Virus record (IMG/VR): IMGVR_UViG_3300030329_003698
Location: 8,517 to 72,516 of that record
Reading direction: 5' to 3' (one strand)
DNA from: a virus
DNA: 64,000 nucleotides
The notes below the pieces were generated by a model that worked only from the letters and a program-made list of their open reading frames with translations, had not been told where the DNA came from and searched no databases. This document shows, piece by piece, positions 29,013 through 55,754 of the stretch. Position 1 is the first letter of the stretch. Each line of letters starts with the position of its first letter. A program made the position numbers and the translations under genes.

Positions 29013-29420
29013 ATGGAAGATCCGTTAAAGAGATTAATAGTAGACTGCGACGGAGTTATAGCTGATAAAAACCACGGTGGCGATTATTCTAAAGCTGGCC
29101 CCCTACAACACGGTATAGACCAAGTTAATAAGCTCTATGACATGGGCTATACTATTGTTCTGTATACTGCGAGATACGGAGATAGGGAAAAAGGTAATAT
29201 ACATCGTCAGTACGAGCGTGGCTATAGAGAGTGGACCGATTGGCTAGAAACACACGGGGTGAAATACCACCATGCTTATATGGGAAAGCCCGCTGGTGTA
29301 ATTTATATAGATGACAAGGCCGCCAGAGTTCGTGGAGACGACCAGTCTGGATGGTCTGAAGTATGGAAAGAAGTGTCTGACTTAGAAGGAAAAGATAGAT
29401 ACGGAAATCCGACCCAATGA
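29013..29420 (+). CDS. HAD-superfamily phosphatase-like protein
   Basis: 135 residues. LIVDCDGVIADKN (motif I, nucleophile Asp), VLYTAR (motif II) and GKPAGVIYIDDKA (motifs III/IV) are present with a minimal cap. Such short HADs are phosphatases of sugar or nucleotide phosphates. AGAGGAG lies before the ATG. It could serve the glycan clusters. Confidence 0.8.
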   Translation: MEDPLKRLIVDCDGVIADKNHGGDYSKAGPLQHGIDQVNKLYDMGYTIVLYTARYGDREKGNIHRQYERGYREWTDWLETHGVKYHHAYMGKPAGVIYIDDKAARVRGDDQSGWSEVWKEVSDLEGKDRYGNPTQ

Positions 29421-38868: not shown

Positions 38869-39881
38869 CTTATATACGAAGCTCATCATATAATAGTTAT
38901 GATTACTGTCAACAACAGTATTATATAAATTATGTTTTGGGGTTTCCGTCAACATCAGGCAAAAAAGCCCAACAGGGAACCATCGTCCACAAGGTGATGG
39001 AGTGTCTGTCCGCTTGCAAGAAAAGACTACAAAATCTCCCCGAGTCTAGTTTGATGAGCGTGACAGATGACGCGCTTGGAAGAATCACATTCACCCACAG
39101 CAAACTATACTCAGATGAATTTGTTGATAAATTAGTGGATAAAAGTTTTGAACATTATACTTCTAATTGCGTCCATGATTATACAGATAAAGAAGAGAGG
39201 GAGTGTCGCAAATGGACGTGGATGGGTCTACATTACAATGACGGCCAATTTGATCCTAGAAACAGAACCATTGTAGACACAGAACCACACTTTGACATCG
39301 AGATAGATGAACCTTGGGCAGAGTATGACTACACCCTTGATGATGGGACAAGACTAAAAGGTAAATTAGCCATCAAGGGGACTATAGATCTAGTTACCGA
39401 GGTGGAAAACGGGGTCATAGAAGTTGTAGATTGGAAGACTGGAAGAAGAATTAATTGGGCCACAGGTGAAGAAAAAGACTATAATAAACTAGAGACTGAC
39501 CCACAACTGCTTCTCTACTATTATGCTATATCAAAGCTATACCCTGATTACGATCAGGCTATAATGACCATTTTCTATATCAAAGACGGAGGACCATTCT
39601 CACTGTGCTATGACGATGGGGCTAAAGAGTTATTTCTTAATATGCTAAGAAAGAGATTCAACCAAATAAAAAATAACAAATCCCCAATGTTATTGTCTCA
39701 GAACCAATCGCACTGGAAGTGTACTAAACTTTGCGATTACTATAAGAACAACTGGGAAGGTACGGATACTAATATTTGTAAATATGTACAACAACATATT
39801 AAGCAAAACGGTATCGAAAGGACAACGCAAGATTGTACCAAACCAGACTTTAACATAGGGTATTATGATGCTCCCGGTTAA
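38859..39881 (+). CDS. RecB/Cas4-like nuclease
   Basis: 340 residues. N-terminal [20 protein letters not shown] is the usual RecB/Cas4 start with a Cys. The active site is [12 protein letters not shown] and [10 protein letters not shown] (D-x-K). A C-terminal Cys cluster (CTKLC ... NICKY) could, with the N-terminal Cys, bind a 4Fe-4S cluster as in AddB/Cas4; the phage IscA could serve it. Probable 5'-3' exonuclease in recombination. It overlaps the next gene by 17 bases. Confidence 0.8.
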
Positions 39882-40812
39882 ATATTTTAACAATAAAGAG
39901 ATCGCGGAACTACTCTCAGTTCCAGAGTGTGTAGAGCTTGTAGAAGACCTTTTTCTAAATTTTGACGACACCCAGATGCCGCCCAAAGTATACATGAATG
40001 TTCCCAACGGGGACTTCAGGGCTATGCCAGCGGTTGTGGGCAAAACGGCGGGAATTAAGTGGGCTGGACTCAACATCAAGGAAGAGGGCAAGATCAACAT
40101 CTTTGCTATGGTGATGATCAATGATATTGAAACTGGAGACCTGCTAGCAGTTTTAGACGCAGAAACACTTACGGCTATTAGAACGGCGGCTGTGACAGGT
40201 GTTGCTACTAGACACATGTCTCCGTCTTATGCCAAAACAGCGGCATTCATAGGTTGTGGACATCAGACGCTCAGACAAATTCGGGCGGTAGCGCATGTCA
40301 GAGATATAGAAACTATAAAGCTTTTTGACCTGAGTGAAGATAGAGCAAACTCGGTAAAAGAAGCCCTTCAGTATAAAGACAACTATTATCAGTCGCAGGG
40401 AATTGCGGTAGAGGTTTGTGAAAGCCTAGAACAATGTTTGTGGGATTCTGATATTGTTACGACTTTAACACCATCACGAACACCTTTTATAAAATATAAA
40501 GATTTAAAACCTATAGTTCATATTAATGCCGTTGGCGCTGACGCAGAGGGAAAAAGAGAATTGCACTCCTGCGTCCTTGAAAATGTTGATATGGTCTCCT
40601 ACGATGAGTGGGTCCAGTGTTCCCATTCTGGAGAGATACAATACGCCAAGAAAAGCAAAATCTCACAGATATGGTCGCCATTATCAGAAATAGTGCAAGG
40701 AAGAGTTGAAAAAAGTGGCGCGTTGAGGACTCTGTTTGACGCCACAGGGCTTGCTATAGAAGACGTTGCCACAGCCCGATATATCTACGAAAAGTTTAAC
40801 AGGAAAAAATAA
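39865..40812 (+). CDS. Ornithine cyclodeaminase/mu-crystallin family protein
   Basis: 315 residues. NDIETGDLLAVLDAETLTAIRTAAVTGVATRH and FIGCGHQTLRQIRAV are hallmark segments of the family; the NAD-binding Rossmann core follows. Members convert ornithine to proline or reduce cyclic ketimines such as piperideine-carboxylate. It lies just upstream of the split polymerase N-half and close to the lysine/arginine cassette. Substrate is unresolved. Confidence 0.85.
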   Translation: MMLPVKYFNNKEIAELLSVPECVELVEDLFLNFDDTQMPPKVYMNVPNGDFRAMPAVVGKTAGIKWAGLNIKEEGKINIFAMVMINDIETGDLLAVLDAETLTAIRTAAVTGVATRHMSPSYAKTAAFIGCGHQTLRQIRAVAHVRDIETIKLFDLSEDRANSVKEALQYKDNYYQSQGIAVEVCESLEQCLWDSDIVTTLTPSRTPFIKYKDLKPIVHINAVGADAEGKRELHSCVLENVDMVSYDEWVQCSHSGEIQYAKKSKISQIWSPLSEIVQGRVEKSGALRTLFDATGLAIEDVATARYIYEKFNRKK

Positions 40813-40850: not shown

Positions 40851-42767
40851 ATGCCTATCTGGACACCGTTGCATCTACACACTCACTACAGTTTGCTCGA
40901 CGGACTTTCAAAACCCGCTCAGGTTGCTGCGCGTTGCGAAGAACTTGGGTATGACTCATGCGCCTTAACAGACCATGGGACAATTTCAGGGTCCATCTCT
41001 TTTGTTAGAGCTATGAAAGAGAAAAACATAAAGCCTATTTTGGGTTGTGAGTTCTATCTATGTGATCAAGACCCTTGTATTAAAGATAAAACAAACAGAC
41101 GGCTTAGTCATCTAGTAGTGTTGGCTAAGAATTTTGAAGGATGGAAAAAATTAATAGAGGCCACGTCAGCTAGCAACGACGAAGAGGTCTTTTACCACAA
41201 GCCTCGTCTAGACCTGAACACCTTGGCAGAATACTGTGATGGCAACCTGATAAGTTTTTCGGGCCATCTTGGTAGTCAACTTGCAGATATCATCTTTTCA
41301 GATGCCAGATCTGCCTATGGAGCTAAAACATACGAAGAAGCAAAATCGTTCGTGGACCCGGACTGGGTTAGCAAAACTACCCAGCTTGCTGAGAAATACC
41401 GCGAGATATTTGGCAAGGATAATTTCTTCCTTGAGATACAACTTATTGACCAAGATATGGCTCCGGCACAGAGGATTACAGCAGAGGGGCTAAGATATGT
41501 AAGTAAGTTAACAGGAATACCCTGTGTAGCTACAGCAGACTCTCATTACCCATCCTCAGAGGATGCAGCCGATCAGCGCGTTCTACTTTGTTCGTCTCTC
41601 AGAACTACGCTAAAAAAAGTCAGCGAGAAGATGAACAACGACGAGGAGATAGGTCTTGGCGGATTCTTTCGCTCTAACAAATACCACATTCCCACACAAG
41701 AAGAAATAGCTGCTATAAATTCCGAGGCTGAGATAGCCAACACCAGAAGAATCAGTGATATGTGCGAGTCTTATGAAGTCTTGGGAAAACCAATGCTTCC
41801 TAAGTTCGACTGTCCTGATGGAATGGGTGAATATGAATATCTAACGCAACTGTGTAGACATGGTTGGGTGGACAGGCTAGCGTCTCTTGGAAAGGTTGAT
41901 GACCAGAACAAGAGCAACGAATATTCCGAAAGGATCAAGAAAGAGCTTTCTGTGATAAAAGAGGCAGACCTCTCTGGATACTTTCTTATCGTCCAAGATA
42001 TCGTTAACCATGTTAGGCAAGAAAACTGGTTGCCGGGGCCGGGAAGAGGGTCGGCGGCAGGTTGTCTTATTTCCTATCTGATTGGTATAACAGAAGTAGA
42101 CCCCATACAGTATAATTTAATTTTTGAGAGATTTTATAACGCTGGTCGGAACACAGAGGGTCATGTATCCTTGCCTGATATTGATATCGACGTTCCCACA
42201 ACAAAGCGGGAACAAGTAATAGAATATATGCGGGTAAAATACGGAAGAGAAAAAGTCGGCCAGATGGTAACTTTTGGGCGTATGCAGGGTAGAACTTCTA
42301 TCAAAGAGGTTCTTAGGGTTCACGATGCTTGTAGCTACGACGAGATGAATGAGATAACAAGGAACATCCCTTCCGAAGCTGAGATTTCTGACCAGCTACA
42401 AGAAATGGACGATCCCTCAATTATTAGATGGGCATTAATGAACACGCCAGACCAATTAAAAGATTGGTGTAGACTTGAGGATGACGGCACAATTACTGGC
42501 GAACTAGGCAAGCTTTTTGAACAAGCTATCAGACTAGAAGGAACATACAAATCTCAGGGCAAGCATGCAGCAGGGGTTGTGATCGGCTCTGAGAAACTCA
42601 ACGAGGTGTGTCCGATGGTCAGAGAAAAAAGAGGACACGAGAAGATTGCGGGATTGGAAATGCAAGACTTAGAAGCAATGGGTCATGTAAAGTTTGATGT
42701 TCTGGGCATTAGTTTTTTGGACAAAATCATGGGAGTATCTAACCAACTAGACAGTGGAAAAATATAA
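40851..42767 (+). CDS. dnaE-N: DNA polymerase III alpha, N-terminal half (PHP and catalytic palm)
   Basis: 638 residues. PHP domain with LHLHTHYSLLDG and LTDHG. Palm with GPGRGSAAGCL, LPDIDIDV (aspartates near residues 443-447) and KFDVLG (D616), together the three catalytic carboxylates of C-family polymerases. The protein stops about 20 residues after D616 with a normal stop codon. The missing C-half is encoded at 49543-51216. No intein motifs are seen at the end. GGAAGC is a weak ribosome site; a short hairpin CCTAA/TTAGG (40813-40826) is in the leader. Confidence 0.93.
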   Translation: MPIWTPLHLHTHYSLLDGLSKPAQVAARCEELGYDSCALTDHGTISGSISFVRAMKEKNIKPILGCEFYLCDQDPCIKDKTNRRLSHLVVLAKNFEGWKKLIEATSASNDEEVFYHKPRLDLNTLAEYCDGNLISFSGHLGSQLADIIFSDARSAYGAKTYEEAKSFVDPDWVSKTTQLAEKYREIFGKDNFFLEIQLIDQDMAPAQRITAEGLRYVSKLTGIPCVATADSHYPSSEDAADQRVLLCSSLRTTLKKVSEKMNNDEEIGLGGFFRSNKYHIPTQEEIAAINSEAEIANTRRISDMCESYEVLGKPMLPKFDCPDGMGEYEYLTQLCRHGWVDRLASLGKVDDQNKSNEYSERIKKELSVIKEADLSGYFLIVQDIVNHVRQENWLPGPGRGSAAGCLISYLIGITEVDPIQYNLIFERFYNAGRNTEGHVSLPDIDIDVPTTKREQVIEYMRVKYGREKVGQMVTFGRMQGRTSIKEVLRVHDACSYDEMNEITRNIPSEAEISDQLQEMDDPSIIRWALMNTPDQLKDWCRLEDDGTITGELGKLFEQAIRLEGTYKSQGKHAAGVVIGSEKLNEVCPMVREKRGHEKIAGLEMQDLEAMGHVKFDVLGISFLDKIMGVSNQLDSGKI

Positions 42768-42997
42768 TGGATGAAATCGCAGAGCTTTACAAGACAGTAT
42801 TAATAGATGGCTCATCTGTGGAATGTCAAAAACTTTCCCTTTGCTGTCTTAACGACTACTATCCTAGATTTAAAACTTTAAAATACCAAGTAGATTGTGA
42901 CGACTACAGACTAAAGTTTTCACAAATATATGATGGACCTCAACTTGGTCAAGCTATAAGTAAATATCTAGAGATAAAAAGAAAGCTGTATAAATGA
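42767..42997 (+). CDS. Small protein, unknown
   Basis: 76 residues directly after the dnaE-N stop (overlap one base). Helical with cysteines (CQKLSLCCLNDYYPRF). Possibly a linker or assembly factor for the polymerase, or the first gene of the inserted cassette. Not recognised. Confidence 0.6.
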   Translation: MDEIAELYKTVLIDGSSVECQKLSLCCLNDYYPRFKTLKYQVDCDDYRLKFSQIYDGPQLGQAISKYLEIKRKLYK

Positions 42998-43518
42998 GGC
43001 TAGACCACATAGCTTACAGAGTTGCCGACAGAAAAGAGGCTGCCAGCTTTCTAAACTCAATACTTGAGTATAAGGTTGGAACTGAGTTTGATATCGTTTT
43101 TGACGATGGGTCAAAGGCTGAATGCATTGCAATGATCCCTAGAGAAAAAATGGACAATGTCCCACCAATAGAAGCCGGGGGATTTCGACATCTTGCTCCA
43201 GAAATATTCATATCGGACGGGGACGAGAATTCAATTGTTGGTCAGTGGGTTGCCGAAAGAGGTGGTGTTGGAGGGGTTCACCATTTTGCATACCAAGTGT
43301 TTGGAATAGATCGGGTAGTAAAAGATTGGCGAGAAAAAGGCGTAGAATTTCTCACAGAAGACGTAATCGACTGTCCTGAAGACGACCTAAAACAAATCTT
43401 CACAAAACCCCTTGCACAATTGGGCGGGGTGATCATAGAACTCATAGAGCGGGGCCAAAAGGGTTTCTGCCAAAACTCAGTAAAAAATCTAATGGAATCT
43501 ACTAAGGAAGCAAAATGA
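42994..43518 (+). CDS. VOC-fold protein, HPPD/glyoxalase-like
   Basis: 174 residues. LDHIAYRVADRKEAASFLNSILEY begins a vicinal-oxygen-chelate module; HHFAYQVF supplies a second metal His; the end ELIERGQKGFC resembles 4-hydroxyphenylpyruvate dioxygenases. Only one pair of modules fits, so it is shorter than HPPD (~350). It may be an epimerase or dioxygenase on an amino-acid-derived keto acid. It begins the cassette. Confidence 0.75.
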   Translation: MRLDHIAYRVADRKEAASFLNSILEYKVGTEFDIVFDDGSKAECIAMIPREKMDNVPPIEAGGFRHLAPEIFISDGDENSIVGQWVAERGGVGGVHHFAYQVFGIDRVVKDWREKGVEFLTEDVIDCPEDDLKQIFTKPLAQLGGVIIELIERGQKGFCQNSVKNLMESTKEAK

Positions 43519-45005
43519 CGACTTATCAAATCGCCAAAGGCATGCATTACATCAACGGTGAGTTTGTAGAAGGAAACGAAGAAAGTTTATTCGACAGTAT
43601 TAACCCAGCAACAGGGAGAATCATTGGGTCTTTTCCCCAAGCTACATCAGCAGAGATTTCTTCAGCGTACAACGCTGCCAAGTCCGCTTTTCCAGAGTGG
43701 AGAAACTTAAGTAGATTTCAACGCGGCGATTATTTTCTCAGGGTGGCAGAACTTCTAGAAAACAACAAGGAAGATATCGCCGCTATTATTAGCCAAGAAA
43801 CAGGAAAAGTTTTCAACGAGTCTATTGCAGAGGTCAACGAGGCTTTGCACATGGCTCAATACGCTTTTAGCACAGGAAGAATGCCTTATGGAGAAGCAAT
43901 CGCGTCTGAGCTACCTGAAAAAGACGCTTTTATGCTCAGGAAGCCCAAGGGTGTTGTTGCTATTGTTGCTCCTTTTAACTTTCCTTTCGCTATTGGAGGC
44001 TTCTGGTGTGCTGCACCGGCTCTTGTCGAAGGTAATACTGTCGTTCTAAAGCCCAGCGAAGACGTTGCGTGGGTTGGGCAAATTATTGCGGAGCTATACA
44101 AAGAGGCTGGTTTTCCTCCGGGTGTGTTTAACATGGTTCACGGAGATGGAGAGGTTGGCGATAAATTGATCCATGAAGATGTAGACCACATTTGCTTTAC
44201 CGGAAGCGCCGATGTAGGAATGCATGTTCGTAAAGTGTGTGCTGAAAGCTGGCACAAAACTTGTTCTTGTGAAATGGGAAGTAAATCAGCAGTAATTATC
44301 CATGAAGACGCTAATTATGACCTCGCAATGGCAGCATGCCTTGCCAGCGCTTTCAAACTATCTGGTCAACGTTGCGTGTCTGCTGGCCGGATGATTGTCC
44401 ACCGATCTCTATACGACAGATTCGCAAAAGATTTTGCTTCTCTTGCTGCTAACGCCGTAACAGGAGATCCGTTTGACGACAACACATTTTATGGAAGTCT
44501 AATTAATGAACCCCAACTCCAAAGGGTTGAAGGGTTTAACAAAATGGTAGAAGAAGATCCAGAAGCAGAAGTGCTGTTGATGGGAGAACGCTTGGAGGGC
44601 GACGGTTTATTCTTGACGCCCACTGTCTACAAGACTGAGTGGAGAGATGTCCCTTATCTCAAGCAGGAGGTATTTGGACCTCATGTCTCTATTATTCCTT
44701 ACGACACAGTAGATGATGCTATTCGCATTTACAATGATACGGACTATGGACTTTCACTAGGAGTAGTAACGGAGAACTTTAAAATTGCCAGACGTATCCG
44801 TAATGAATGTGATTTTGGTCTTGGTTATTGGAACGGCGGGAGCATTGCTGCTGAGAGCCATCTGGGATTCGGAGGAGTGAAGAAGTCTGGAAACGGACAA
44901 CCTAGCGCAGCCCGAACCTTCAGATCTGTTACCCACGAAGTAGCTTGGACTGTAAACCATGGTGATTCATTAAACTTCCCACAAGGCATGAACACCGGTA
45001 GCTGA
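43515..45005 (+). CDS. Aldehyde dehydrogenase (aminoadipate-semialdehyde type candidate)
   Basis: 496 residues, full length. APFNFPFAIGGFW and VVLKPSEDVAW (NAD site), CFTGSADVG, the catalytic Glu region CEMGSKSAVI, the catalytic Cys in SGQRCVSAGR, and EVFGPHVSI are present. With lysine 6-aminotransferase at 45784, oxidation of aminoadipate semialdehyde to 2-aminoadipate is the natural reading. Sequence alone does not fix the substrate. Confidence 0.9.
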   Translation: MTTYQIAKGMHYINGEFVEGNEESLFDSINPATGRIIGSFPQATSAEISSAYNAAKSAFPEWRNLSRFQRGDYFLRVAELLENNKEDIAAIISQETGKVFNESIAEVNEALHMAQYAFSTGRMPYGEAIASELPEKDAFMLRKPKGVVAIVAPFNFPFAIGGFWCAAPALVEGNTVVLKPSEDVAWVGQIIAELYKEAGFPPGVFNMVHGDGEVGDKLIHEDVDHICFTGSADVGMHVRKVCAESWHKTCSCEMGSKSAVIIHEDANYDLAMAACLASAFKLSGQRCVSAGRMIVHRSLYDRFAKDFASLAANAVTGDPFDDNTFYGSLINEPQLQRVEGFNKMVEEDPEAEVLLMGERLEGDGLFLTPTVYKTEWRDVPYLKQEVFGPHVSIIPYDTVDDAIRIYNDTDYGLSLGVVTENFKIARRIRNECDFGLGYWNGGSIAAESHLGFGGVKKSGNGQPSAARTFRSVTHEVAWTVNHGDSLNFPQGMNTGS

Positions 45006-45805
45006 TGACTGAAATACTAGTATGTAAGCCAACATATTTTGGTATAGAATATGAAATAAACCCTTGGATGAGCATGAATAAAGATGCTGATCCAGAGTTT
45101 GCGATGTTTCAATGGGATCGTATGTGCGACCGTCTCAAAAAGGCGGGTGCTAGGATTAGGTACATCGAACCGCAGCGTGGTTTACCAGACATGGTATTCA
45201 CAGCTAATGCTGGCTTAGTTTACAAAAACACTGTAATTCTATCAAACTTTAGACACCAAGAACGACGAGAAGAAAAAAAACTCTTTAAAGAATGGTTCTT
45301 GCGAAATGGGTACAGGGTTGTCGAACTTCCAGAAAGCGTATGTTTTGAGGGAGAAGGAGACGCTCTTTTTTTTAAGGGTGTGCTGTTTATGGGTTCTGGC
45401 TTCAGAACTGACCCAGACGCACATTCGATAATAGGCCGAGCGCTTGATATAGATGTTGTTAGCTGTGAATTAGTTGACCCAAGGTTCTATCACCTAGACA
45501 CCTGTTTTCTTCCTTTAAAAGATAGAATTGTTTATTACAGAGATGCGTTTTCTAAGTTCAGTCAACATATAATGATACAAAAGCTGATAGAGATTGGTTA
45601 CAATAGTGGGACTTTGGATGTCTTAAACGTACACGAGGACCAAGCTAAAGAGTTTATTTGTAACAGCATTGAGATAGACGAAACTGTTGTAACTCCTACA
45701 GATATGTTTTCTCTATCATTTTCTGGTAAAAAGACGCTGGTTAGCAATATGTCAGAATTTATGAAATCTGGAGGAGCCGTAAAATGTCTAACTCTCAGAC
45801 TATAG
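45005..45805 (+). CDS. Arginine dihydrolase/DDAH-like guanidine hydrolase
   Basis: 266 residues. The N-terminus CKPTYFGIEYEINPWM and LPDMVFTANAGLV are family features of the amidinotransferase/DDAH superfamily, closest by eye to the N-terminal domain of cyanobacterial AgrE/ArgZ. FEGEGDAL, FYHLDTCF (His) and the terminal GGAVKCLTL (Cys) give the Cys-His-acid site. It would hydrolyse arginine or citrulline-like guanidines. Stop overlaps the aminotransferase start. Confidence 0.8.
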   Translation: MTEILVCKPTYFGIEYEINPWMSMNKDADPEFAMFQWDRMCDRLKKAGARIRYIEPQRGLPDMVFTANAGLVYKNTVILSNFRHQERREEKKLFKEWFLRNGYRVVELPESVCFEGEGDALFFKGVLFMGSGFRTDPDAHSIIGRALDIDVVSCELVDPRFYHLDTCFLPLKDRIVYYRDAFSKFSQHIMIQKLIEIGYNSGTLDVLNVHEDQAKEFICNSIEIDETVVTPTDMFSLSFSGKKTLVSNMSEFMKSGGAVKCLTLRL

Positions 45806-46992
45806 ACACTTTACAAAAATACATCCTTGTTGACGGATTTCATATTGTAGTAGACACAAGGAGGAGTGTCGGTAGCTGGATTGTCGATGTAGACATGGGC
45901 AATAGATATTTGGACTGCTACTCTCAATTTGCCAGCCAAGCACTGGGCTGGAAAGACCCAGCTATGATATCCGCACAAAGGGAGATGGGTCGGGTTGGCA
46001 TGACAAAGATTGCCAACAGTGATATGTACTCAGAAGAATACGCAAGGTTTGTTGAAAGTTTTGCGTCCATCACTCCTGATTTTGAACATTACTTTTTTAT
46101 TGACGGTGGAGCTTTAGCAGTAGAGAACGCGCTAAAAGCCGCGTTTGATTGGAAGGCTCAAAAACTGGGGTACAGCCACACTGTTGATATCAACAATCTA
46201 GACATCTTCCATCTCAAGAATGCATTTCACGGGCGAACAGGATACACCCTTTCTCTCACCAATACAACCCCCGAAAAGACCGCGCTTTTTCCCAAGTTTA
46301 GATGGACTACCGTAGAGCCTGATTGGGAAGATATTGAACGCCGTATGCATAAAGAGGTTGCTGCCATCATCGTGGAACCGATCCAAGGTGAAGGTGGAGA
46401 CAACCATTTTCCTACAGAGTTTTTCCAGAACCTTAGACGCATAGCAAACGAACACGATTGCCTTCTTATATTTGATGAAGTGCAAACAGGTATGGGGCTG
46501 ACCGGAAAGATGTGGGCTTATGAACATTTCGATGTTGTCCCAGACATGATGTGCTTCGGCAAGAAAACTCAAGTGTGTGGAGTCTGTTCCACAAACAGGA
46601 TAGACGAGGTAGAGAGCAATGTCTTCAGTACTTCCGGTCGTGTTAATTCTACTTGGGGTGGCAATATTGTGGATATGGTTAGATCTAGATACATAATAGA
46701 TGCTATTCAACAACGAGATTTAGTAGAAAACGCATCGAAAGTTGGCCAAGATCTTCTTAGGCAGTTGAGAAAACTTCCAGTAATAGACAATGTTCGTGGT
46801 AGAGGTCTTATGATTGCGTTTGACTTGCCGGATGAGCAAACGCGAGACGGGATGATGTCACTTCTACAAGAGAACATGCTTGCTCTTAAGTCTGGCAATC
46901 GTTCAATTAGACTAAGACCACCGCTGACATTTTCTTTTGAGGATGCGGAGTCGGCAAAGAACTTCATCTATGAGGCCATTACAAAACTATGA
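45784..46992 (+). CDS. lat: L-lysine 6-aminotransferase
   Basis: 402 residues, PLP class III aminotransferase. The LAT-specific segments VDGFHIVVD, FFIDGGALAVENALKAAFDWK, FHGRTGYTLSLTN and the PLP lysine in FGKKTQVCG (Lys ~260) are intact, as is the PLP-holding Asp in IFDEVQTG. It moves the epsilon-amino group of lysine to 2-oxoglutarate giving aminoadipate semialdehyde and glutamate. It neighbours an aldehyde dehydrogenase and a saccharopine-dehydrogenase-like gene. Confidence 0.9.
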   Translation: MSNSQTIDTLQKYILVDGFHIVVDTRRSVGSWIVDVDMGNRYLDCYSQFASQALGWKDPAMISAQREMGRVGMTKIANSDMYSEEYARFVESFASITPDFEHYFFIDGGALAVENALKAAFDWKAQKLGYSHTVDINNLDIFHLKNAFHGRTGYTLSLTNTTPEKTALFPKFRWTTVEPDWEDIERRMHKEVAAIIVEPIQGEGGDNHFPTEFFQNLRRIANEHDCLLIFDEVQTGMGLTGKMWAYEHFDVVPDMMCFGKKTQVCGVCSTNRIDEVESNVFSTSGRVNSTWGGNIVDMVRSRYIIDAIQQRDLVENASKVGQDLLRQLRKLPVIDNVRGRGLMIAFDLPDEQTRDGMMSLLQENMLALKSGNRSIRLRPPLTFSFEDAESAKNFIYEAITKL

Positions 46993-47828
46993 AAATAAGA
47001 AACGTAGGAATAGTAGGGCAGGGCTTTGTTGGGACGGCTTTAAGAGAAGTGTTCTCGTGTTACAACAAAGTGTATACTTATGATAAAGCTCATAAAGATC
47101 TCTCCACGCATAAAGGAATATCCGATCTATCATACTCTTGTGATGTGATTTTTGTTTGCGTTCCAACGCCAATGAAGCCAGACGGATCATGCGACACATC
47201 AATTGTTGAGACGGTTTGTTTAGATGCTTGCAAAACCGGAAGACAAAATATCATTGTCATCAAGTCTACGGTTCCTCCGGGGACCACCAAAAAAATCAAC
47301 GAAAAATGCATTGATTCCCAAGTAGTCTTTAACCCTGAGTTTCTTCTGGAAAGAAACGCCACTGAAGACTTTCGTAATACCAGTCGTGTTATTCTAGGTG
47401 GGCCAAGGCCAGCTACGACTAGACTAAGATCATTCTACGCAAACGTTTTCCCCAAAGCCTCCATTGTAAAGACAGACTCAACTATAGCGGAGTACGTGAA
47501 ATATCTCACCAATTGCTTCTTATCTGTGAAGGTTTCCCTAGCCAACGAAATCTCGTCGATGTGCAAGGAGGACGGGGTTGACTACGACAAGGTGATCGAA
47601 TATGCTATACACGACAACAGATTGGGGGATTCTCACTGGTCGGTTCCCGGCCCGGACGGCAATCTGGGATTTGGAGGGAGTTGTTTTCCAAAAGATCTCA
47701 ACGCTTTAATACAACACGCAATAAATGCTGGCGTACCTCCAAACACTATGATCGGCGCTTGGAATACCAATCTAACAGTAAGACCACAAAAAGACTGGGA
47801 ACAGCTTAAAGGAAGGGCTGTACAATGA
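46989..47828 (+). CDS. Short UDP-glucose/GDP-mannose dehydrogenase-like protein
   Basis: 279 residues. Rossmann GIVGQGFVGTAL, VCVPTPMKPDGSCD, KSTVPPGTT, NPEFLLERNA and the active-site Cys in GFGGSCFPKD are present, so the NAD-binding and central domains are complete. The C-terminal UDP-binding domain of ordinary enzymes (~400-450 residues) is missing. It could act on another sugar or need a partner. It seems out of place in an amino-acid cassette. Confidence 0.8.
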   Translation: MKIRNVGIVGQGFVGTALREVFSCYNKVYTYDKAHKDLSTHKGISDLSYSCDVIFVCVPTPMKPDGSCDTSIVETVCLDACKTGRQNIIVIKSTVPPGTTKKINEKCIDSQVVFNPEFLLERNATEDFRNTSRVILGGPRPATTRLRSFYANVFPKASIVKTDSTIAEYVKYLTNCFLSVKVSLANEISSMCKEDGVDYDKVIEYAIHDNRLGDSHWSVPGPDGNLGFGGSCFPKDLNALIQHAINAGVPPNTMIGAWNTNLTVRPQKDWEQLKGRAVQ

Positions 47829-48895
47829 GAGCAGCTATAATTGGCGTGGGAAACATGGGTCAAGCTGTAGCTTGGTCTATGGATGAACTTGGCTTTGATT
47901 TAACGCTTGTTGACTCTTCGGAAAAAGCTCTCGAAGAGTGTAACCAGCTTTTACAAAAACCCGCTAACCTACAACATAGTTATACTCTAGGGCTTGGCAA
48001 TCCAGACGTAGTTATATCTTGTCTTCCGTACAGCGAAAACACTTTACTAGCACAGTACTGCATCAAAAACAGACTAAGGTATTGTGATCTTGGCGGAAAC
48101 GTAAAAATCAGCGAAGACATCAACGAATTCGCCAGTAGATCCGCTAAAGCCCCAATTATGACTGACCTCGGCCTTGCTCCGGGTTTTGTTAACATTGTTC
48201 TTGAAGAGTTTTTCAGACAGGCGTCGGAAGCGGAAGACCAACTGAAGACTCCAGAAAATGTCAATGTTATGGTTGGTGGTATCCCTCAAAGCCGAGTACC
48301 ATCAGATTATTTTAATTATAACTGCACTTGGTCTGTGGACGGCTTGATCAACGAATATACGGAAGACTGCATCCTTGTTCAGAACGGGGTAAAGATTGTA
48401 TCTCCACCACTCCTTGGTTTAGTAAAACTAATGACAAAAAATCTTGGAGAACTAGAAGCCTTTTACACAAGCGGTGGGTCTGCCCATAGCGTAAATAGAA
48501 TGATAGAGCTTGGGGTTTCTAATTTTTCATACAGGACATTACGCTGGCCGGGACACCACTGGACCATAAATCTACTGATCAATAAATGCGATCTAAATAA
48601 AGATCAGCTTAAGCACATATTTACAAAAAACTGTAGCACACCAACAAATGATGACTGTGTTGCTATTTATATGAGTGTGGATGACAAGATTCAAGAGATG
48701 GTCATATATCCACAAAGAGGGTTTACAGCCATGCAAGTTGGCACTGGATACTCAGCCGCAGTAGTAGCCTCTCTACTTGCGAGGGGAGACTTCGACGACA
48801 AGAAGACTGTAAAATATGAAGACATAAATTTTGAAACTTTTACTGAAGTTCTAGACAAACTTGTAAGCACAGAGAACGATAATGAATTACAATGA
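47825..48895 (+). CDS. Saccharopine dehydrogenase-like protein
   Basis: 356 residues. NAD site IIGVGNMGQAVAW; VVISCLPYSEN; YCDLGGN and TDLGLAPGFVN are typical of saccharopine/lysine 6-dehydrogenase-type enzymes. It would oxidise or reduce a lysine-derived secondary amine near the lysine 6-aminotransferase. It overlaps the exonuclease start by 14 bases, tying the cassette to the replisome genes. Confidence 0.85.
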   Translation: MRAAIIGVGNMGQAVAWSMDELGFDLTLVDSSEKALEECNQLLQKPANLQHSYTLGLGNPDVVISCLPYSENTLLAQYCIKNRLRYCDLGGNVKISEDINEFASRSAKAPIMTDLGLAPGFVNIVLEEFFRQASEAEDQLKTPENVNVMVGGIPQSRVPSDYFNYNCTWSVDGLINEYTEDCILVQNGVKIVSPPLLGLVKLMTKNLGELEAFYTSGGSAHSVNRMIELGVSNFSYRTLRWPGHHWTINLLINKCDLNKDQLKHIFTKNCSTPTNDDCVAIYMSVDDKIQEMVIYPQRGFTAMQVGTGYSAAVVASLLARGDFDDKKTVKYEDINFETFTEVLDKLVSTENDNELQ

Positions 48896-49562
48896 TATTT
48901 GCGTTTTCGATTTTGAGACCGGGAGTAGAAACCCACACACAACACAGCCAATACAAGTGGCTGCTGTAATGATTCATGGCAGAAAACTGACCATACAACC
49001 AGACGGATATTTCGAATCTCTTATAAAACCAATGGGAGATGAAAAAGCTGTGGCCGCTGGTGTGGACCCGCTAGAAGACGAGGCTCTTCAAATAAACGGC
49101 AAGACCAGAGCAGAGCTTTCAAAAGCTCCACACGCCAAAACTGTGTGGGAAAGATTTGCAAACTTTGTAAACAAGTTTAACTACAAAGGGGGTTCTTGGA
49201 CCGCCCCCATAGCCGCTGGTCACAATATAGACAATTTCGATATGATTATTGCCGAAAGACTATGCAAATCATACGGACCAATAGATAAGAAGAGGAATGT
49301 TCAGGCCGTCTTTCATCCAATCCATAGGCTAGACTTGATGAGAGAGGTTTGGATGTGGACAGAAAATAACAAAGACATCAGAAGTATAAGCATGGACTCT
49401 ATTAGAGACTGGCTTGGTATGTCTAAAGAAAATGCCCACGACGCCCTACAAGATGTAAAAGACACCGCCGCTGTATTGATTAAGTTTATGAAACTTTATC
49501 GTCATTACGCACCCAAGGTTAAGTTTGAAAAGGCTTTTGCCAATGACGGATTACCGGTTTGA
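48882..49562 (+). CDS. DnaQ-like 3'-5' exonuclease (proofreading)
   Basis: 226 residues, DEDDh type: VFDFETGS, AAGHNIDNFD, HRLDLMRE and HDALQDVKDT supply the acidic residues and His. It lies directly before the polymerase C-half, which it overlaps by 20 bases, so it is the likely epsilon-type proofreading subunit. Confidence 0.88.
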   Translation: MNYNDICVFDFETGSRNPHTTQPIQVAAVMIHGRKLTIQPDGYFESLIKPMGDEKAVAAGVDPLEDEALQINGKTRAELSKAPHAKTVWERFANFVNKFNYKGGSWTAPIAAGHNIDNFDMIIAERLCKSYGPIDKKRNVQAVFHPIHRLDLMREVWMWTENNKDIRSISMDSIRDWLGMSKENAHDALQDVKDTAAVLIKFMKLYRHYAPKVKFEKAFANDGLPV

Positions 49563-51216
49563 TTGCGGTTGTAGCTTCTCTGTTAAAGATCCGAAGCACC
49601 CTATTACTCTATCCCAAACGGGTTTGCCATCTGTAGACTTTAAAATAAGAGAGTCTCCATATGATTGTAGAATGACTTGGGACTTAATCAAGGAAGGGAA
49701 AACAAAAGGTGTATTTCAACTTGAAAGTAATTTAGGAAAATCTTGGGCAAAAAGGATTCGCCCAAACAACATCGAAGAATTAGCCGCTCTAACGGCCTTG
49801 ATCAGACCCGGATGCCTCAAGGCAATCATTGACGGCAAGTCGATGACTCAGAGGTACGTCGACAGAAAGAATGGCACAGAGGAGTTAACGTACTTACACG
49901 ACTCCCTAGAGCCAATATTGGAGTCCACGCAAGGGGTTCTGGTATACCAAGAGCAGAGCATGCAGATAGCGCAAGTTATCGCGGGTTTTGATCTTCAACA
50001 AGCCGACTCTTTAAGAAAGGCTATTGGTAAGAAAAACGCCAGCTTGATGTCAGAGGTAAAGGATTCTTTTTTAGACGGGGCCGACAGCAAAGGACTCGTT
50101 ACTAGAGAAATTGCGGAAGAAATTTTTGGGTGGATTGAGAAATCCAACAGGTACGCTTTCAATAAAAGCCACGCCGTTTCTTATGCCATTTGTGGATACT
50201 GGTCAGCTTACGCTAAAGCTCATTTCCCAATTAATTTCTACTGTAACTACCTCTATTTTGCTGACGGAAAACAAGATACACAATCCGAGATCAGAGAGGT
50301 TGTGAGTGACGCTAGAATTCACGGCGTTGAGATAGCCGCACCCTCCATAGTCAATATGAACCACAAATTTAATATAAACAATAGGATTATACACTTTGGG
50401 TTTAATGACATTAAGTCTGTCGGGGCAAAGCAGGTTGAAAAGCTGGTCTCTACAATTTCTGAGATCGAAGAATTTCTAGAAAAGCCTGTTGTGGATTGGT
50501 CTTGGTATCAATTCCTGATAAATGCCTCTCACAAGATTAATAGTAAAGTTTGCAACGCCCTAGCGTCTGTTGGGGCGTTTTCTTGTTTTGGTATCTCCCG
50601 AAACAGAATGATCTACGAGATTGATGTTTGGTCCAAGCTAACGGACAAAGAAAGAGCTTGGATAATAGAACGGCAAAAGAGTTGGGACGAGATAATACCA
50701 GCTTTGACAGAACTGTCTCCTACCAAAAAAATGGGTGGCGGAACGTTTAATGGTACAAGAAGCGAGATTGTCAGAAGTCTTGTTTTGATGCTGGAAGACC
50801 CGCCATACTCTCTTGACGATTCTCCAAGCTGGTCTTCTAGGGTTGAAAAAGAATATCTCGGAATACCCATTAGTTATTCTGAAGTTGATTCCTGTGACAC
50901 CAGTGCGGCCACCGCCACTTGCAAAGAGTTTTTCGATGGAATCAAAGGTGATGTCACCTTGGCTGTCCAGATTATAGACCTGAAAGAATATAAATTAAAA
51001 AAGGGTCAAAATAAGGGCAGGAATATGGCTTTTCTTACGGTTGAAGATGGTACAGGATCTATTGATAATGTGACAGTCTTTTGTGATGATTGGGAAAAAC
51101 ACAACACAACTTTATACGAAGGAAACACCGTTTTGTTGTACGGAGGTCGCTCAGACAGATCGCAAGCCAACAGAGGAAACGACGGTTTTGTTGTCAAAAA
51201 AGTTGTGCAAATCTGA
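49543..51216 (+). CDS. dnaE-C: DNA polymerase III alpha, C-terminal half
   Basis: 557 residues from the ATG at 49543 (AAAGG upstream; a TTG at 49525 is less likely). After a short CGCSF-containing lead it resumes the DnaE chain at TWDLIKEGKTKGVFQLES, then ALTALIRPG, VYQEQSMQIAQVIAGF, ADSLRKAIGKK and NRYAFNKSHAVSYA (fingers). The tail has an HhH-like segment and an OB fold (VTLAVQIIDLKEY). It has none of the catalytic aspartates, which are on the N-half. Both halves sum to ~1195 residues, the length of one complete alpha subunit. Confidence 0.93.
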   Translation: MTDYRFDCGCSFSVKDPKHPITLSQTGLPSVDFKIRESPYDCRMTWDLIKEGKTKGVFQLESNLGKSWAKRIRPNNIEELAALTALIRPGCLKAIIDGKSMTQRYVDRKNGTEELTYLHDSLEPILESTQGVLVYQEQSMQIAQVIAGFDLQQADSLRKAIGKKNASLMSEVKDSFLDGADSKGLVTREIAEEIFGWIEKSNRYAFNKSHAVSYAICGYWSAYAKAHFPINFYCNYLYFADGKQDTQSEIREVVSDARIHGVEIAAPSIVNMNHKFNINNRIIHFGFNDIKSVGAKQVEKLVSTISEIEEFLEKPVVDWSWYQFLINASHKINSKVCNALASVGAFSCFGISRNRMIYEIDVWSKLTDKERAWIIERQKSWDEIIPALTELSPTKKMGGGTFNGTRSEIVRSLVLMLEDPPYSLDDSPSWSSRVEKEYLGIPISYSEVDSCDTSAATATCKEFFDGIKGDVTLAVQIIDLKEYKLKKGQNKGRNMAFLTVEDGTGSIDNVTVFCDDWEKHNTTLYEGNTVLLYGGRSDRSQANRGNDGFVVKKVVQI

Positions 51217-51772: not shown

Positions 51773-52171
51773 ATGTCGATGAACAATTGCAATTTTATTG
51801 GTCGTCTTGTTGCCGATCCCGAACTAAACGACGTTAATGACACAAGCGTCGTGAGGTTTACTCTGGCTATCAACGAATACCGAAAGTCCAGAGACGGCGA
51901 AAAGAACAAGAACGTCAGTTATCTAGATTTTGAAGCTTGGGACACAGGAGCGACCACAATTGGCAAGCATTGTCGCAAGGGCGATGAAATTGCTGTATTG
52001 GCTTCTGCTCGTCAGGACAAGTGGACTGACAAGGAGGGCAACCGTCGCTCAAAGGTCAAGTTTAGAGTGAACAAGTTCAAGTTGTTTAATTATAACAATA
52101 ACAATAACAACGACAGGCAAAAGGAAGAGACTCAAAAAGTAGCTGTTGCGGAGAGCGATGCCCCGTTCTAA
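51773..52171 (+). CDS. ssb: Single-stranded DNA-binding protein
   Basis: 132 residues. The OB fold begins NNCNFIGRLVADPEL, with VVRFTLAINEYRKS and VSYLDFEAWDTGA as in bacterial SSB. A polar asparagine-rich linker leads to the C-terminal AESDAPF, the partner-docking tip (compare DDIPF). It coats ssDNA at the fork. Overlaps the sigma factor by 14 bases. Confidence 0.92.
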   Translation: MSMNNCNFIGRLVADPELNDVNDTSVVRFTLAINEYRKSRDGEKNKNVSYLDFEAWDTGATTIGKHCRKGDEIAVLASARQDKWTDKEGNRRSKVKFRVNKFKLFNYNNNNNNDRQKEETQKVAVAESDAPF

Positions 52172-52673
52172 GAATTCAAATAAAGACTCTAAAGAGACAA
52201 AAGAGCTTGAGGAACAGCTAGTCCATACTCATTATGGATTGGTTGTTTCTCAGGCTCTTCGTTTTTCTAACAACAGGAGTTATATAGAAGATTACATACA
52301 GGTGGGATTGATAGGTCTGTTAAAGGCTATCAGAAATTACGATTCAGAAAAAAGTAAATTTTCAACCTTCGCTACCGTTTGCATAAGAAACGAAATATTT
52401 AGATATACAAGAAAAAATAAGCCAAAGACAATCCCTGTAGACGCAAAAATCAAAAATGTTATAAACAGGACCGACGACTGGTACGTTCCTGTAGAGGGAA
52501 TATGGGAGTACATCCCAGACAGCTTGACTGAAAAAGAAAGGCTGGTGTTGCAAATGAAGTTTGAAAACTACACACATAAAGAAATAGCAGATACAATATG
52601 TTGCTCAAAAGGAAGAGTAAAAAACATCCTTAAAAAAATCATATCCTTATTGCAAAGAGCCAATGGCGAATAG
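52158..52673 (+). CDS. Second phage sigma factor
   Basis: 171 residues from the ATG at 52158. Region 2: VVSQALRFSNNRSYIEDYIQ, VGLIGLLKAIRNYD and FSTFATVCIRNEIFRYTRKN. Region 4: LTEKERLVLQMKF and HKEIADTICCSKGRVKNIL. It looks like a sporulation/SigF-like short sigma. It is unlike the factor at 14465, so the phage may run two late regulons. Confidence 0.85.
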   Translation: MPRSKNSNKDSKETKELEEQLVHTHYGLVVSQALRFSNNRSYIEDYIQVGLIGLLKAIRNYDSEKSKFSTFATVCIRNEIFRYTRKNKPKTIPVDAKIKNVINRTDDWYVPVEGIWEYIPDSLTEKERLVLQMKFENYTHKEIADTICCSKGRVKNILKKIISLLQRANGE

Positions 52674-54342
52674 AAAAAAAAGAATCCTCTTGTGCAACGA
52701 GGCTTCATTCCTAAATACTGGTTATGCTACTTATGGCCGAGAGGTCATGAAAAGATGGCATGCGTCCGGTAAATACGATGTAGCAGAGCTATCTGTCTAT
52801 GCTCATCCGGCAGACGAGAGACTTAATGAAATACCGTGGCCTACATATCCAAACTCTCCGCTACCAAACAATTCAGAAGCATTCAACGAGTACCACTCCA
52901 TCCCAACCAACCAATTTGGAGAATGGAGATTTGAGGATGTCTGCTTAGACTTTAAACCTGATATCGTGGTAGATATCAGAGACTTCTGGATGCTGGAGTT
53001 TGAAGAGAGGTCGCCTTTTAGAGATCTGTTTTATTGGTTCATCATGCCCACCGTTGACGCAGAAGGGCAAAACGAGCAATGGTTGGCAACCTACGCAAAC
53101 GCTGACGTAGTCTTCACATATTCAGACTTTGCTGGCGAGACACTAAAACAAGAAAGCGGAGGGTGTATCAACTATGTTGGCACTGCTCCACCTTCAGCGG
53201 ACTCAGTATATCGACCGGCAGAAGATAGAGATGAACACAAAAAGCGCCTTGGTCTGAAACCAGAAACAAAGATCATCGGCACGGTGATGCGCAACCAGCG
53301 TAGAAAACTGTTCCCAGACCTATTCGAAACCTTTAGAAAGTTCCTAGATCTCACCGACAACCCAAACATCTTTCTATATTGCCATACAAGCTACCCTGAT
53401 GTTGGGTGGGATCTCCCAAAGCTGATAAAGAAGTTCGGCTTGGCCAGCAGGTTGTTATTCACCTATGTATGCGAAGAATGTAACTGGTGTTTTCCTTCGT
53501 TTTTTGTTGACTCTATCACAAGTTGTTCGAGGTGCGGTGGCCATAAGTGTGGTTTGTCGAACGTTAACAGAGGGGTTTCTACAGAATACCTTGCTGACAT
53601 CATGAACACGTTTGACCTGTATATACAGTACGCCAACAGCGAAGGGTTTGGTTTGCCGCAAGTGGAGGCGGCGGCCTGCGGAGTACCAGTCATGTCTGTT
53701 GACTACTCTGCTATGAGTAGCGCTGTTAGAAAAATAAATGGCACACCTATCCAGCTAAAGACAAAATATCTAGAACTGGAAACGGGATGTTATAGGGCCA
53801 TACCAGACAATGATTACACCGTTGAGAAACTGGTTGAATTCTTCAAACTAAGCAAAGAAGAGCAGCACGCCTTGGGGGACAACTCTAGAAAGGGTTTTGA
53901 GGAAAATTATTCCTATGACAAAACTGCTGAAATTTGGGAGAGAGAGTTTGACAACGCCCCCATAAGAGAGGGGATCTGGGATTCCCCACCCAAGCTACAT
54001 AATCCGTCTACGGAGATTCCTAAAAATTTAACAAACAAAGAGATTGCCAAGTGGTTGATAGTAAATGTCCTTGGCGATCCTTCTAAGCTGGATAGCTACA
54101 TGGAGGCTAGGCTAACCAGAGACCTGAACTACGGAGTCTTTATAGAAGGTACTGGTAGCCTGTATTTTAACGAAGATTGCTATGCTTACAACAAACCCTC
54201 GTTTCAGAAATTTGACGTTCAAGAGGCTTACAACCAGCTAGCCGGAATGAGAGGAAAAATTAACTACTGGGAGCAAAGAAGGCTTGGTCAAATTCAAGCT
54301 CCCAGACCGAAATGGATGCCCAACAATGTTCCCAGTATTTAA
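52663..54342 (+). CDS. GT4-type glycosyltransferase with inserted zinc ribbon
   Basis: 559 residues. The N-terminal Rossmann domain has CNEASFLNTGYATYGREVM. The donor-site region is ANSEGFGLPQVEAAACGVP. Between them (~residues 270-300) lies a four-to-six-cysteine zinc ribbon (CEECNWC ... SCSRCGGHKC), unusual in GT-B enzymes. The C-terminal ~120 residues are extra. It starts the second glycan cluster right after the sigma factor gene. Confidence 0.8.
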   Translation: MANRKKRILLCNEASFLNTGYATYGREVMKRWHASGKYDVAELSVYAHPADERLNEIPWPTYPNSPLPNNSEAFNEYHSIPTNQFGEWRFEDVCLDFKPDIVVDIRDFWMLEFEERSPFRDLFYWFIMPTVDAEGQNEQWLATYANADVVFTYSDFAGETLKQESGGCINYVGTAPPSADSVYRPAEDRDEHKKRLGLKPETKIIGTVMRNQRRKLFPDLFETFRKFLDLTDNPNIFLYCHTSYPDVGWDLPKLIKKFGLASRLLFTYVCEECNWCFPSFFVDSITSCSRCGGHKCGLSNVNRGVSTEYLADIMNTFDLYIQYANSEGFGLPQVEAAACGVPVMSVDYSAMSSAVRKINGTPIQLKTKYLELETGCYRAIPDNDYTVEKLVEFFKLSKEEQHALGDNSRKGFEENYSYDKTAEIWEREFDNAPIREGIWDSPPKLHNPSTEIPKNLTNKEIAKWLIVNVLGDPSKLDSYMEARLTRDLNYGVFIEGTGSLYFNEDCYAYNKPSFQKFDVQEAYNQLAGMRGKINYWEQRRLGQIQAPRPKWMPNNVPSI

Positions 54343-54610
54343 AAACAGAGCCGGATTTGAAATAACGTTCAATAATGAGGTTACAGTCTTTGTAGAATGG
54401 GATTCTTCCAGTGGTAACCTTGCCTCTGCGAGAGCTTCTCACTCTAAAGCTGGAGATTTACACGTCACAAGTTTTGAGAAAAAGTACACGGAAGGCAACT
54501 ACACTATTAAAGATTTGTCGCCTGAAGAGCTTCTTAAATTTTTGAACAAGTCTTGCAGCATGCGTTTTACAGAAGAGGGCGAACAGTGCGTAGCCTTTTT
54601 TGACTTTTAA
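54326..54610 (+). CDS. Small protein, unknown
   Basis: 94 residues from the ATG at 54326. Beta-rich (AGFEITFNNEVTVFVEWD), possibly a small jelly-roll or accessory domain. Overlaps the glycosyltransferase by 17 bases. Not recognised. Confidence 0.55.
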   Translation: MFPVFKNRAGFEITFNNEVTVFVEWDSSSGNLASARASHSKAGDLHVTSFEKKYTEGNYTIKDLSPEELLKFLNKSCSMRFTEEGEQCVAFFDF

Positions 54611-54623
54611 ATAGATAGAAGAA

Positions 54624-55754
54624 ATGAAAGTATTATTTATAGGCTGTTATAGAGATGGTACTGGCTGGGCAAAAGCAGCCGGTGACTATATTCTGGCAAT
54701 GGATGCCGCCGGAATAGATGTGGTGTGCAGACCTTTGAAGTTGAATGATAACAATATGCGAATCCATCCTAGATTGATGGAGTTAGAACAAAAAAGTCTT
54801 CGTGGTAGCGACATCTGTATTCAAAACCTTCTACCACACCACATGGATTACAATGGCTTGTTTGATAAAAACATAGCGCTTTATTTTACAGAAACCGATA
54901 GGTTTACGGAATCAACTTGGGCCAACAAAATCAATTTGATGGATGAGGCTTGGGTTGCTTGCAGCCAAATGGTGGAAGCCTCAGAGAGAAGCGGGGTTAA
55001 TGTACCTATAAAGGTTATCCCATGTGCGTCAGATGAAAACAAATATATGACGCCCAGACCAAAGCTACAGATACCAGAACTACAAGAAAAATTCTCCTTC
55101 TACTTTATTGGCGACAGTACAAGAAGAAAAAACCTTGTGGCCTTACTAAAAGCCTACCACCTAGAATTTGAGACGCACGAACAAGTCGCCCTTGTGGTAA
55201 AAACCACCAAGTATGGAGAACACCCAGACCAGACTCTAGAAAACCTTAAAAATATCTGCAACACGGTGAAGGCTAACCTCAAGCTGTACCCTTCATTGGA
55301 CAAATATAATTATGAACTATTAATCACTGAACACATATCTGAAGAAGAATTGAATAGCTTGCATGCCTCTTGCCACTGCTTTGTCATGCCTAGTTTCGGA
55401 GAAGCTTGGTGTATACCCGCCTTTGATGCCATGGGGTTTGGCAGCACGCCTATTTGCTCAGACGTGGGTGGCCCGAGAGACTTCTTACAAGACGCAGGTT
55501 TTTTGATTGAGTGTACCGAAGAACCAGTCTTTGGTATGACAGATACGTTTTCAGACATATATGTGGGTCGTGAAAACTGGTGGAGCATCAATATTAATTC
55601 TCTCAGGAAGAAGATGAGAGAAGTGTACGAATTGTGGAAAGATAACGGGACAGAGTACGCCGACTTGCAGGATAGAGGCTTGCAGAGAGCCAAAGAGTAT
55701 TCCTATGAGAAGGTCGGACAAATGATCAAGCGGGAGCTAGAGAATGCCAGTTAA
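54624..55754 (+). CDS. Glycosyltransferase, GT-B fold (GT4-like)
   Basis: 376 residues. FIGCYRDGTGWAKAAGDYI, FTETDRF, FYFIGDSTRRKNLVALLKAY and PSFGEAWCIPAFDAMGFG give the usual two-domain GT4 layout. It ends overlapping the next glycosyltransferase. Confidence 0.85.
   Translation: MKVLFIGCYRDGTGWAKAAGDYILAMDAAGIDVVCRPLKLNDNNMRIHPRLMELEQKSLRGSDICIQNLLPHHMDYNGLFDKNIALYFTETDRFTESTWANKINLMDEAWVACSQMVEASERSGVNVPIKVIPCASDENKYMTPRPKLQIPELQEKFSFYFIGDSTRRKNLVALLKAYHLEFETHEQVALVVKTTKYGEHPDQTLENLKNICNTVKANLKLYPSLDKYNYELLITEHISEEELNSLHASCHCFVMPSFGEAWCIPAFDAMGFGSTPICSDVGGPRDFLQDAGFLIECTEEPVFGMTDTFSDIYVGRENWWSININSLRKKMREVYELWKDNGTEYADLQDRGLQRAKEYSYEKVGQMIKRELENAS

What the first reader, a model, noticed from the sequence alone, without database searches (positions are those of the whole stretch)
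40851..51216. DNA polymerase III alpha encoded as two separate genes with a metabolic cassette between them
The N-half (PHP, PDIDID and KFD catalytic aspartates) ends with a normal stop at 42767. The chain resumes in a separate gene with its own ribosome site at 49543, which carries fingers, HhH and OB parts. About 6.8 kb lies between, of which ~5.9 kb is amino-acid and sugar metabolism and the rest a small gene and a DnaQ-like exonuclease. The two proteins must reassemble without an intein, which I cannot see. A split replicase wrapped round a catabolic cassette is, as far as I know, not a described arrangement.
Basis: partly seen in the sequence, partly recalled or inferred. Interest (0 to 1): 0.9.

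Follow-up and report, generated by a model that had tools for sequence, protein, structure and literature searches.

The report
Phage replicase in two gene pieces
This uncultivated phage, and every close relative found, builds its only detectable DNA-copying enzyme from two separately encoded proteins with no intein to join them, and in this phage and one sister lineage a ready-made set of amino-acid-metabolism genes has moved into the gap between the two halves.

Summary
DnaE-type polymerase III alpha is encoded as polN (40851-42767: PHP, palm, all three catalytic Asp) and polC (49543-51216: fingers, HhH, OB). The break lies at the palm/fingers boundary (E. coli residues about 564-580), so no conserved block is lost. 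There is no intein or intron at the junction. No PolA or PolB was found in the record or in seven larger relatives. It is not an assembly error. All 162 fetched IMG/VR loci with both halves are split (73 clusters at 80% identity, one clade), almost always ordered polN - small protein - DnaQ-like exonuclease - polC - SSB. So the split is an old property of this phage group and does not depend on the cassette. The cassette (VOC-ALDH-DDAH-LAT-UGDH, plus SDH) is itself a phage cassette. In 11 relatives it sits behind a HAD-phosphatase gene; here that gene is intact at 29013-29420 with nothing behind it. The cassette apparently relocated once, in the ancestor of this phage and its sister, into a gap that takes different cargo in other lineages. 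Most likely polN and polC assemble non-covalently; this was not testable here. Rossellomorea phage phiT1 already has the same break in GenBank, so this is a new variant of a known kind.

The parts
39865..40812 (+). Ornithine cyclodeaminase / mu-crystallin family gene just upstream of polN; associated amino-acid gene
   Evidence: PF02423 1e-67; also upstream of polN in L005, L009, L062, L081, L082, L083, L084, L086
40851..42767 (+). polN: PHP + palm half of DnaE, 638 aa, with PDIDID and VKFD catalytic Asp
   Evidence: AlphaFold2 pLDDT 89.7; Foldseek to Taq/E. coli Pol III alpha
42767..42997 (+). Small conserved protein (~76 aa), function unknown, found in most of the relatives examined between polN and the exonuclease
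   Evidence: no Pfam or PHROG match
42994..43518 (+). VOC/glyoxalase-fold protein, first cassette gene
   Evidence: PF13669 2e-6
43515..45005 (+). Aldehyde dehydrogenase
   Evidence: PF00171 2e-130
45005..45805 (+). DDAH / arginine-dihydrolase-like protein
   Evidence: NF052232 1e-75, below cut-off; PF19420 2e-16
45784..46992 (+). Class III aminotransferase, nearest L-lysine 6-transaminase
   Evidence: TIGR03251 484 bits, cut-off 521
46989..47828 (+). Short nucleotide-sugar (UDP-glucose) dehydrogenase-like protein
   Evidence: TIGR03026 194 bits
47825..48895 (+). Saccharopine-dehydrogenase-like oxidoreductase
   Evidence: PF16653 6e-20
48882..49562 (+). DnaQ-like 3'-5' exonuclease (DEDDh residues conserved), probable proofreading subunit, between the polymerase halves throughout the clade
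   Evidence: PF00929 1e-12; phrog_192 4e-25; alignment A3
49543..51216 (+). polC: fingers + HhH + OB half of DnaE, 557 aa (ORF open from TTG 49525)
   Evidence: AlphaFold2 pLDDT 83.9; Foldseek to Pol III alpha
51773..52171 (+). Gene that follows the polymerase operon throughout the clade, taken as single-stranded DNA-binding protein
   Evidence: Synteny; identified by sequence inspection only, not scanned against families
29013..29420 (+). HAD phosphatase gene behind which the cassette sits in 11 related contigs; here nothing is inserted (presumed ancestral, now empty site)
   Evidence: TIGR01689 1e-14, below cut-off

Best explanation
The phage replicates with a two-subunit C-family polymerase. 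polN supplies PHP and the complete palm active site; polC supplies fingers, HhH and OB. The break falls in the poorly conserved stretch between palm and fingers, so both chains can fold as separate domains and associate through the palm-fingers interface without peptide ligation (inferred). The exonuclease encoded between them, in overlapping frame with polC, is the likely proofreading partner (inferred). The split is ancestral to the phage clade (supported by the tree). Because the gene was already in two pieces, the gap tolerated insertions. In the ancestor of this phage and its sister, a phage-borne cassette moved from its usual place behind the HAD phosphatase gene into the gap between the small gene and the exonuclease (supported by an empty site and synteny). 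It is now probably co-expressed with the replicase (inferred from overlapping genes), and probably diverts host arginine/lysine nitrogen and carbon during replication (weak inference).
For: Domains and full profile coverage with only about 8 columns missing; E. coli alpha aligned to 563/564 by polN and from 580 by polC. Catalytic Asp invariant in 16 diverse rows. Confident separate folds with best PDB hits to Pol III alpha. All 162 clade loci split, none fused; 64 more loci, partly the same contigs, all split; one clade, support 0.80. Only one palm domain, one fingers domain and no PolA/PolB in eight records of 77-173 kb. No intein motif or Rfam match at the junction, while the same scan detects inteins in L131/L132. 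Cassette elsewhere in 11 relatives, behind the homologue of 29013-29420; single LAT copy in the own record.
Against: No complex was predicted or measured: a heterodimer could not be modelled with these tools. polN and polC distances correlate 0.86, no higher than with SSB (0.85-0.88), so this shows co-inheritance, not contact. The record is a 77 kb fragment, so another polymerase outside it is possible. Clade support is moderate, and relatives were ranked by similarity, so distant fused ones could be missed. Cassette function rests on family names, several below curated cut-offs.
Confidence: 0.8

Rival explanations
1. Assembly or binning artefact that joined pieces of different genomes.
For: Single metagenomic record; read coverage could not be inspected.
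Against: Same junctions at 49-85% protein identity on contig 3300025267_002024, and the left part on 3300025282_002619; about 160 loci with the halves apart; seamless overlapping genes.
Confidence: 0.01
2. The halves are joined covalently by a split intein or RNA trans-splicing that was not recognised.
For: Relatives L131/L132/L145 do carry a split intein, but inside polN.
Against: polN ends 16-43 residues after the catalytic KFD and polC has 16-66 residues before its conserved TKGxFQ, leaving no room for a typical Int-N; no intein or intron family match and no intein motif at the window junction.
Confidence: 0.03
3. polN and polC are decaying remnants and the phage uses the host polymerase or another replicase.
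For: A subclade has degenerate PHP motifs.
Against: Palm and finger motifs invariant across the clade, long open frames throughout, no other polymerase found.
Confidence: 0.04
4. The cassette was acquired independently from a host at this site rather than relocated within the phage lineage.
For: The SDH-like gene is only 49% identical to that of the sister phage, so at least that gene may have a separate history.
Against: VOC-ALDH-DDAH-LAT-UGDH in the same order at 49-83% identity in relatives, against at most 51% for bacterial LAT and no bacterial synteny beyond ALDH-LAT.
Confidence: 0.1
5. The cassette makes a sugar or amino-acid decoration (of capsid, cell surface or DNA) rather than feeding catabolism.
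For: UGDH-like gene, capsule-type HAD phosphatase next to the ancestral site, glycosyltransferase-like genes in the window.
Against: DDAH, LAT, ALDH, SDH and OCD families fit arginine/lysine breakdown more directly.
Confidence: 0.3

Closest known systems
Rossellomorea phage phiT1 (PV767480) gp20/gp18, annotated twice as DNA polymerase III subunit alpha
   Same: Break at the same palm/fingers point (...VKFDLLGLKTLKVI / MFDILDIPLDDAKTY...), with a small gene between.
   Different: About 31-38% identity, outside the clade in the tree; only a 49 aa gene between, no exonuclease or cassette.
Other split phage DnaE (KLEB27-3 with HNH gene; Rie18; BpsS-140; Cellulophaga phi13:1)
   Same: DnaE-type polymerase encoded in two ORFs.
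   Different: Break elsewhere: inside the fingers or upstream in the PHP-palm part; sporadic.
Methanothermobacter thermautotrophicus PolB
   Same: Replicative polymerase encoded by two polypeptides (PMC7776575).
   Different: B family, in an archaeon.
Cyanobacterial split DnaE with DnaE intein
   Same: DnaE in two distant genes (own knowledge).
   Different: Trans-spliced by a split intein; break later, in the FNKSHA region (own knowledge); none here.
Fractured genes with split inteins (Dassa et al. 2009, cited in PMC7090010; content from own knowledge, paper not held)
   Same: Split genes in metagenomic phages with a gene in between; seen inside polN of L131/L132/L145.
   Different: The window junction has no intein and no homing endonuclease.
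Phage auxiliary metabolic gene cassettes
   Same: Bacterial-type metabolic enzymes in a phage genome.
   Different: Inserted between two parts of the replicase; this particular set of genes was not found described.

Membership tests
C-family DNA polymerase (DnaE) | PHP, palm with three catalytic Asp, fingers, HhH, OB | tested here: met
   the OB match is below Pfam's cut-off, but phrog_405 covers the region
C-family DNA polymerase (DnaE) | Single polypeptide | tested here: not met
   Two ORFs in the window and in all 162 clade loci
C-family DNA polymerase (DnaE) | C-terminal tau-binding domain (present in cellular replicative DnaE) | tested here: not met
   polC match to PRK05673 ends at column 1049 of 1146
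C-family DNA polymerase (DnaE) | Template-dependent DNA synthesis | not testable with these tools
   Needs biochemistry
Split-intein trans-spliced DnaE | Int-N after the N half and Int-C before the C half | tested here: not met
   positive control L131/L132
Fractured gene with homing endonuclease | Endonuclease gene between the parts | tested here: not met
   All genes in the gap assigned to other families, or a conserved small protein without match
Non-covalent two-subunit polymerase | Stable polN-polC complex | not testable with these tools
   No multimer modelling available
Phage auxiliary metabolic cassette | Bacterial-type metabolic genes recurrent in phage contigs | tested here: met

The most novel reading that the evidence does not exclude
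A large uncultivated phage lineage replicates obligately with a two-subunit C-family polymerase divided at the palm/fingers boundary, with a separately encoded exonuclease and small protein as further subunits. The divided operon acts as a recurrent landing site for lineage-specific cargo, here a relocated amino-acid-metabolism cassette co-expressed with the replicase.
Probability: 0.6. Interest if true: 0.68.

Novelty: new variant of a known kind. Interest (0 to 1): 0.58.

Why it matters
Pol III alpha is normally a single chain with the active site spread over palm and fingers. A whole phage clade that has kept it in two chains, without ligation, would be a natural experiment on how far a replicase can be divided, and a possible source of split polymerases. 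The gap between the halves also shows how phages can place metabolic genes under the same expression as the replicase.

Tried and rejected
Assembly error (rejected: independent diverged contigs). Intein/intron (rejected: no motif, no Rfam match, no room for a typical Int-N). A hidden second polymerase (PolA, PolB and further DnaE sought in eight records, none found). Host origin of the cassette: the first genome scan with the SDH-like protein found nothing; the second with LAT found only distant homologues, at best 51% identity, with ALDH-LAT neighbours. Mobile-element marks at the cassette ends: no direct repeats. Promoter and terminator scans were at chance level. Isolated phages of this clade: none; the terminase of a relative gives only about 23-32% matches and the exonuclease none. 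Fused relatives: only outside the clade. The LAT gene in the 595 kb phage LR756511 has no other cassette gene near it. The one 'split' call for Pseudomonas phage Y1 (L224) is a script artefact; it is fused.

Full report
What is there. The window lies in an IMG/VR virus record of 77,182 bases. polN (40851-42767) has PHP and palm; polC (49543-51216, frame open from TTG 49525) has fingers, HhH and OB. polN covers DnaE profile TIGR00594 to column 569 and polC starts at 577. Against E. coli alpha, polN aligns to residue 563/564 and polC from 580. From my own knowledge of the E. coli structure, this is the palm/fingers boundary. E. coli has 52 residues between D555 and VFQLES; in the clade polN continues 16-43 residues after KFD and polC has 16-66 before TKGxFQ, so nothing is missing. 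All ten genes from polN to polC overlap by 1-22 bp.

Fold and constraint. AlphaFold2 gives polN mean pLDDT 89.7, pTM 0.87, and polC 83.9, pTM 0.75. Foldseek finds Pol III alpha first for both: polN TMq 0.76 to 2hpi; polC TMq 0.52 to 2hpi and 0.65 to 7pu7. Catalytic motifs are invariant in 16 diverse polN sequences and fingers motifs in 16 polC sequences. The exonuclease keeps its DEDDh residues. In eight records of 77-173 kb there is one palm and one fingers domain, and no PolA or PolB; the records may be incomplete.

Relatives. tblastn of both halves over fetched viral contigs gives the order polN - (small gene) - exonuclease - polC - SSB nearly throughout. One search counted 166 split loci; leaving out L219, L220, L232 and the artefact L224 gives 162, some of them the same contig fetched twice, none fused. 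Reduced at 80% identity they give 73 representatives, which form one clade (support 0.80) without any fused member. A separate scan from polN gave 64 loci with both halves, all split, partly the same contigs. Fused DnaE occurs outside, at about 30-36% identity. The same break occurs in Rossellomorea phage phiT1; its distant relative L317 is also in two ORFs, with an RNase HII-like gene between (identified by eye). Whether these share the origin of the split is unresolved. Other phages are split at other points.

No ligation device. No intein family or motif and no Rfam match at the junction. As a positive control, L131 and L132 have a split intein inside polN: GPGRG/CFLPDSRV (in L131 TIGR01445 35.5 bits, cut-off 24.5) and YNIEGI[GA]VHN/S, with a putative endonuclease ORF between; L145 has the same N-part. 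In those phages the polymerase is in three pieces, two of which should be trans-spliced.

The cassette. LAT-based search of viral contigs and mapping show VOC-ALDH-DDAH-LAT-UGDH as a phage cassette. In L177, L178, L180, L181, L182, L184, L185, L186, L187, L191 and L216 it lies directly or closely behind the homologue (75-87% identity) of window gene 29013-29420, a HAD phosphatase; L181 lacks a detected VOC gene. In the window that gene is followed by an unrelated gene at 29417. Several of these contigs also carry the split polymerase elsewhere, for example L184 and L002 (3300032006_002122), L186 and L119 (3300025277_002331), L191 and L012 (3300030419_004857), L216 and L007 (3300025274_001348). 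Only the window and L082/L001 have the whole cassette between the halves (L084/L183 shows it up to UGDH); the window and L082 are sisters in the tree. A single move within the lineage is the simplest account. Bacterial LAT is at most 51% identical, and beside ALDH no other cassette gene is syntenic.

The gap as an insertion site. In other lineages it holds different genes: epimerase-like and sugar genes (L076), a UGDH-like gene (L073/L074), ThyX-like and pseudopilin-like genes (L127/L130) and a methyltransferase-like gene (L130), assorted genes in L118, L322 and L332. These names come partly from reading the translations and were not all scanned.

Inference. Shown: two genes, conserved split, intact motifs, no other polymerase found, cassette relocation by synteny. 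Inferred: non-covalent assembly, the role of the exonuclease and small protein, operon co-expression, and arginine/lysine catabolism. Nothing here measures a complex or an activity.

Noticed in passing
L131:6044-9120, L132:6059-9148, L145:6059-7468: polN further fractured by a split intein at the GPGRG/S motif with a putative endonuclease ORF between, giving a three-piece polymerase.
   Followed up: partly
L039, L042, L046, L052, L060, L073, L078 polN: A subclade with polN of about 520-545 aa has lost much of the PHP domain and its metal-binding motifs, while palm motifs stay intact.
   Followed up: partly
window 42767-42997 and L002, L005, L006, L009, L011, L016, L017, L030, L060, L076, L081, L082: Conserved small protein of about 70-90 aa between polN and the exonuclease, without family match; possible replicase subunit.
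   Followed up: partly
L127:7374-9838, L130:6358-9850: Between exonuclease and polC lie ThyX-like and pseudopilin-like (FTLVELLVVIAIIGVL) genes, in L130 also a methyltransferase-like gene; the pseudopilin-like one recalls Planctomycetes proteins and may hint at the host.
   Followed up: no
L345:10792-12696: polC frame ends after about 315 aa and is followed by an ORF that may be a homing-endonuclease-type gene; possibly a further break in polC.
   Followed up: no
L317:3099-7533: A distant DnaE (about 30% identical) is also split near the palm/fingers boundary, with an RNase HII-like gene between.
   Followed up: partly
window 47825-48895: The SDH-like gene is only 49% identical to that of the sister phage, while the other cassette genes are 71-85%; it may have been replaced.
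   Followed up: no
window 52663-56742: Consecutive glycosyltransferase-like genes by sequence inspection, downstream of the SSB gene.
   Followed up: no
L098 (LR756511.1) and L193-L215: Very large phage contigs and other viral contigs carry LAT homologues (47-57%) without the rest of the cassette.
   Followed up: partly
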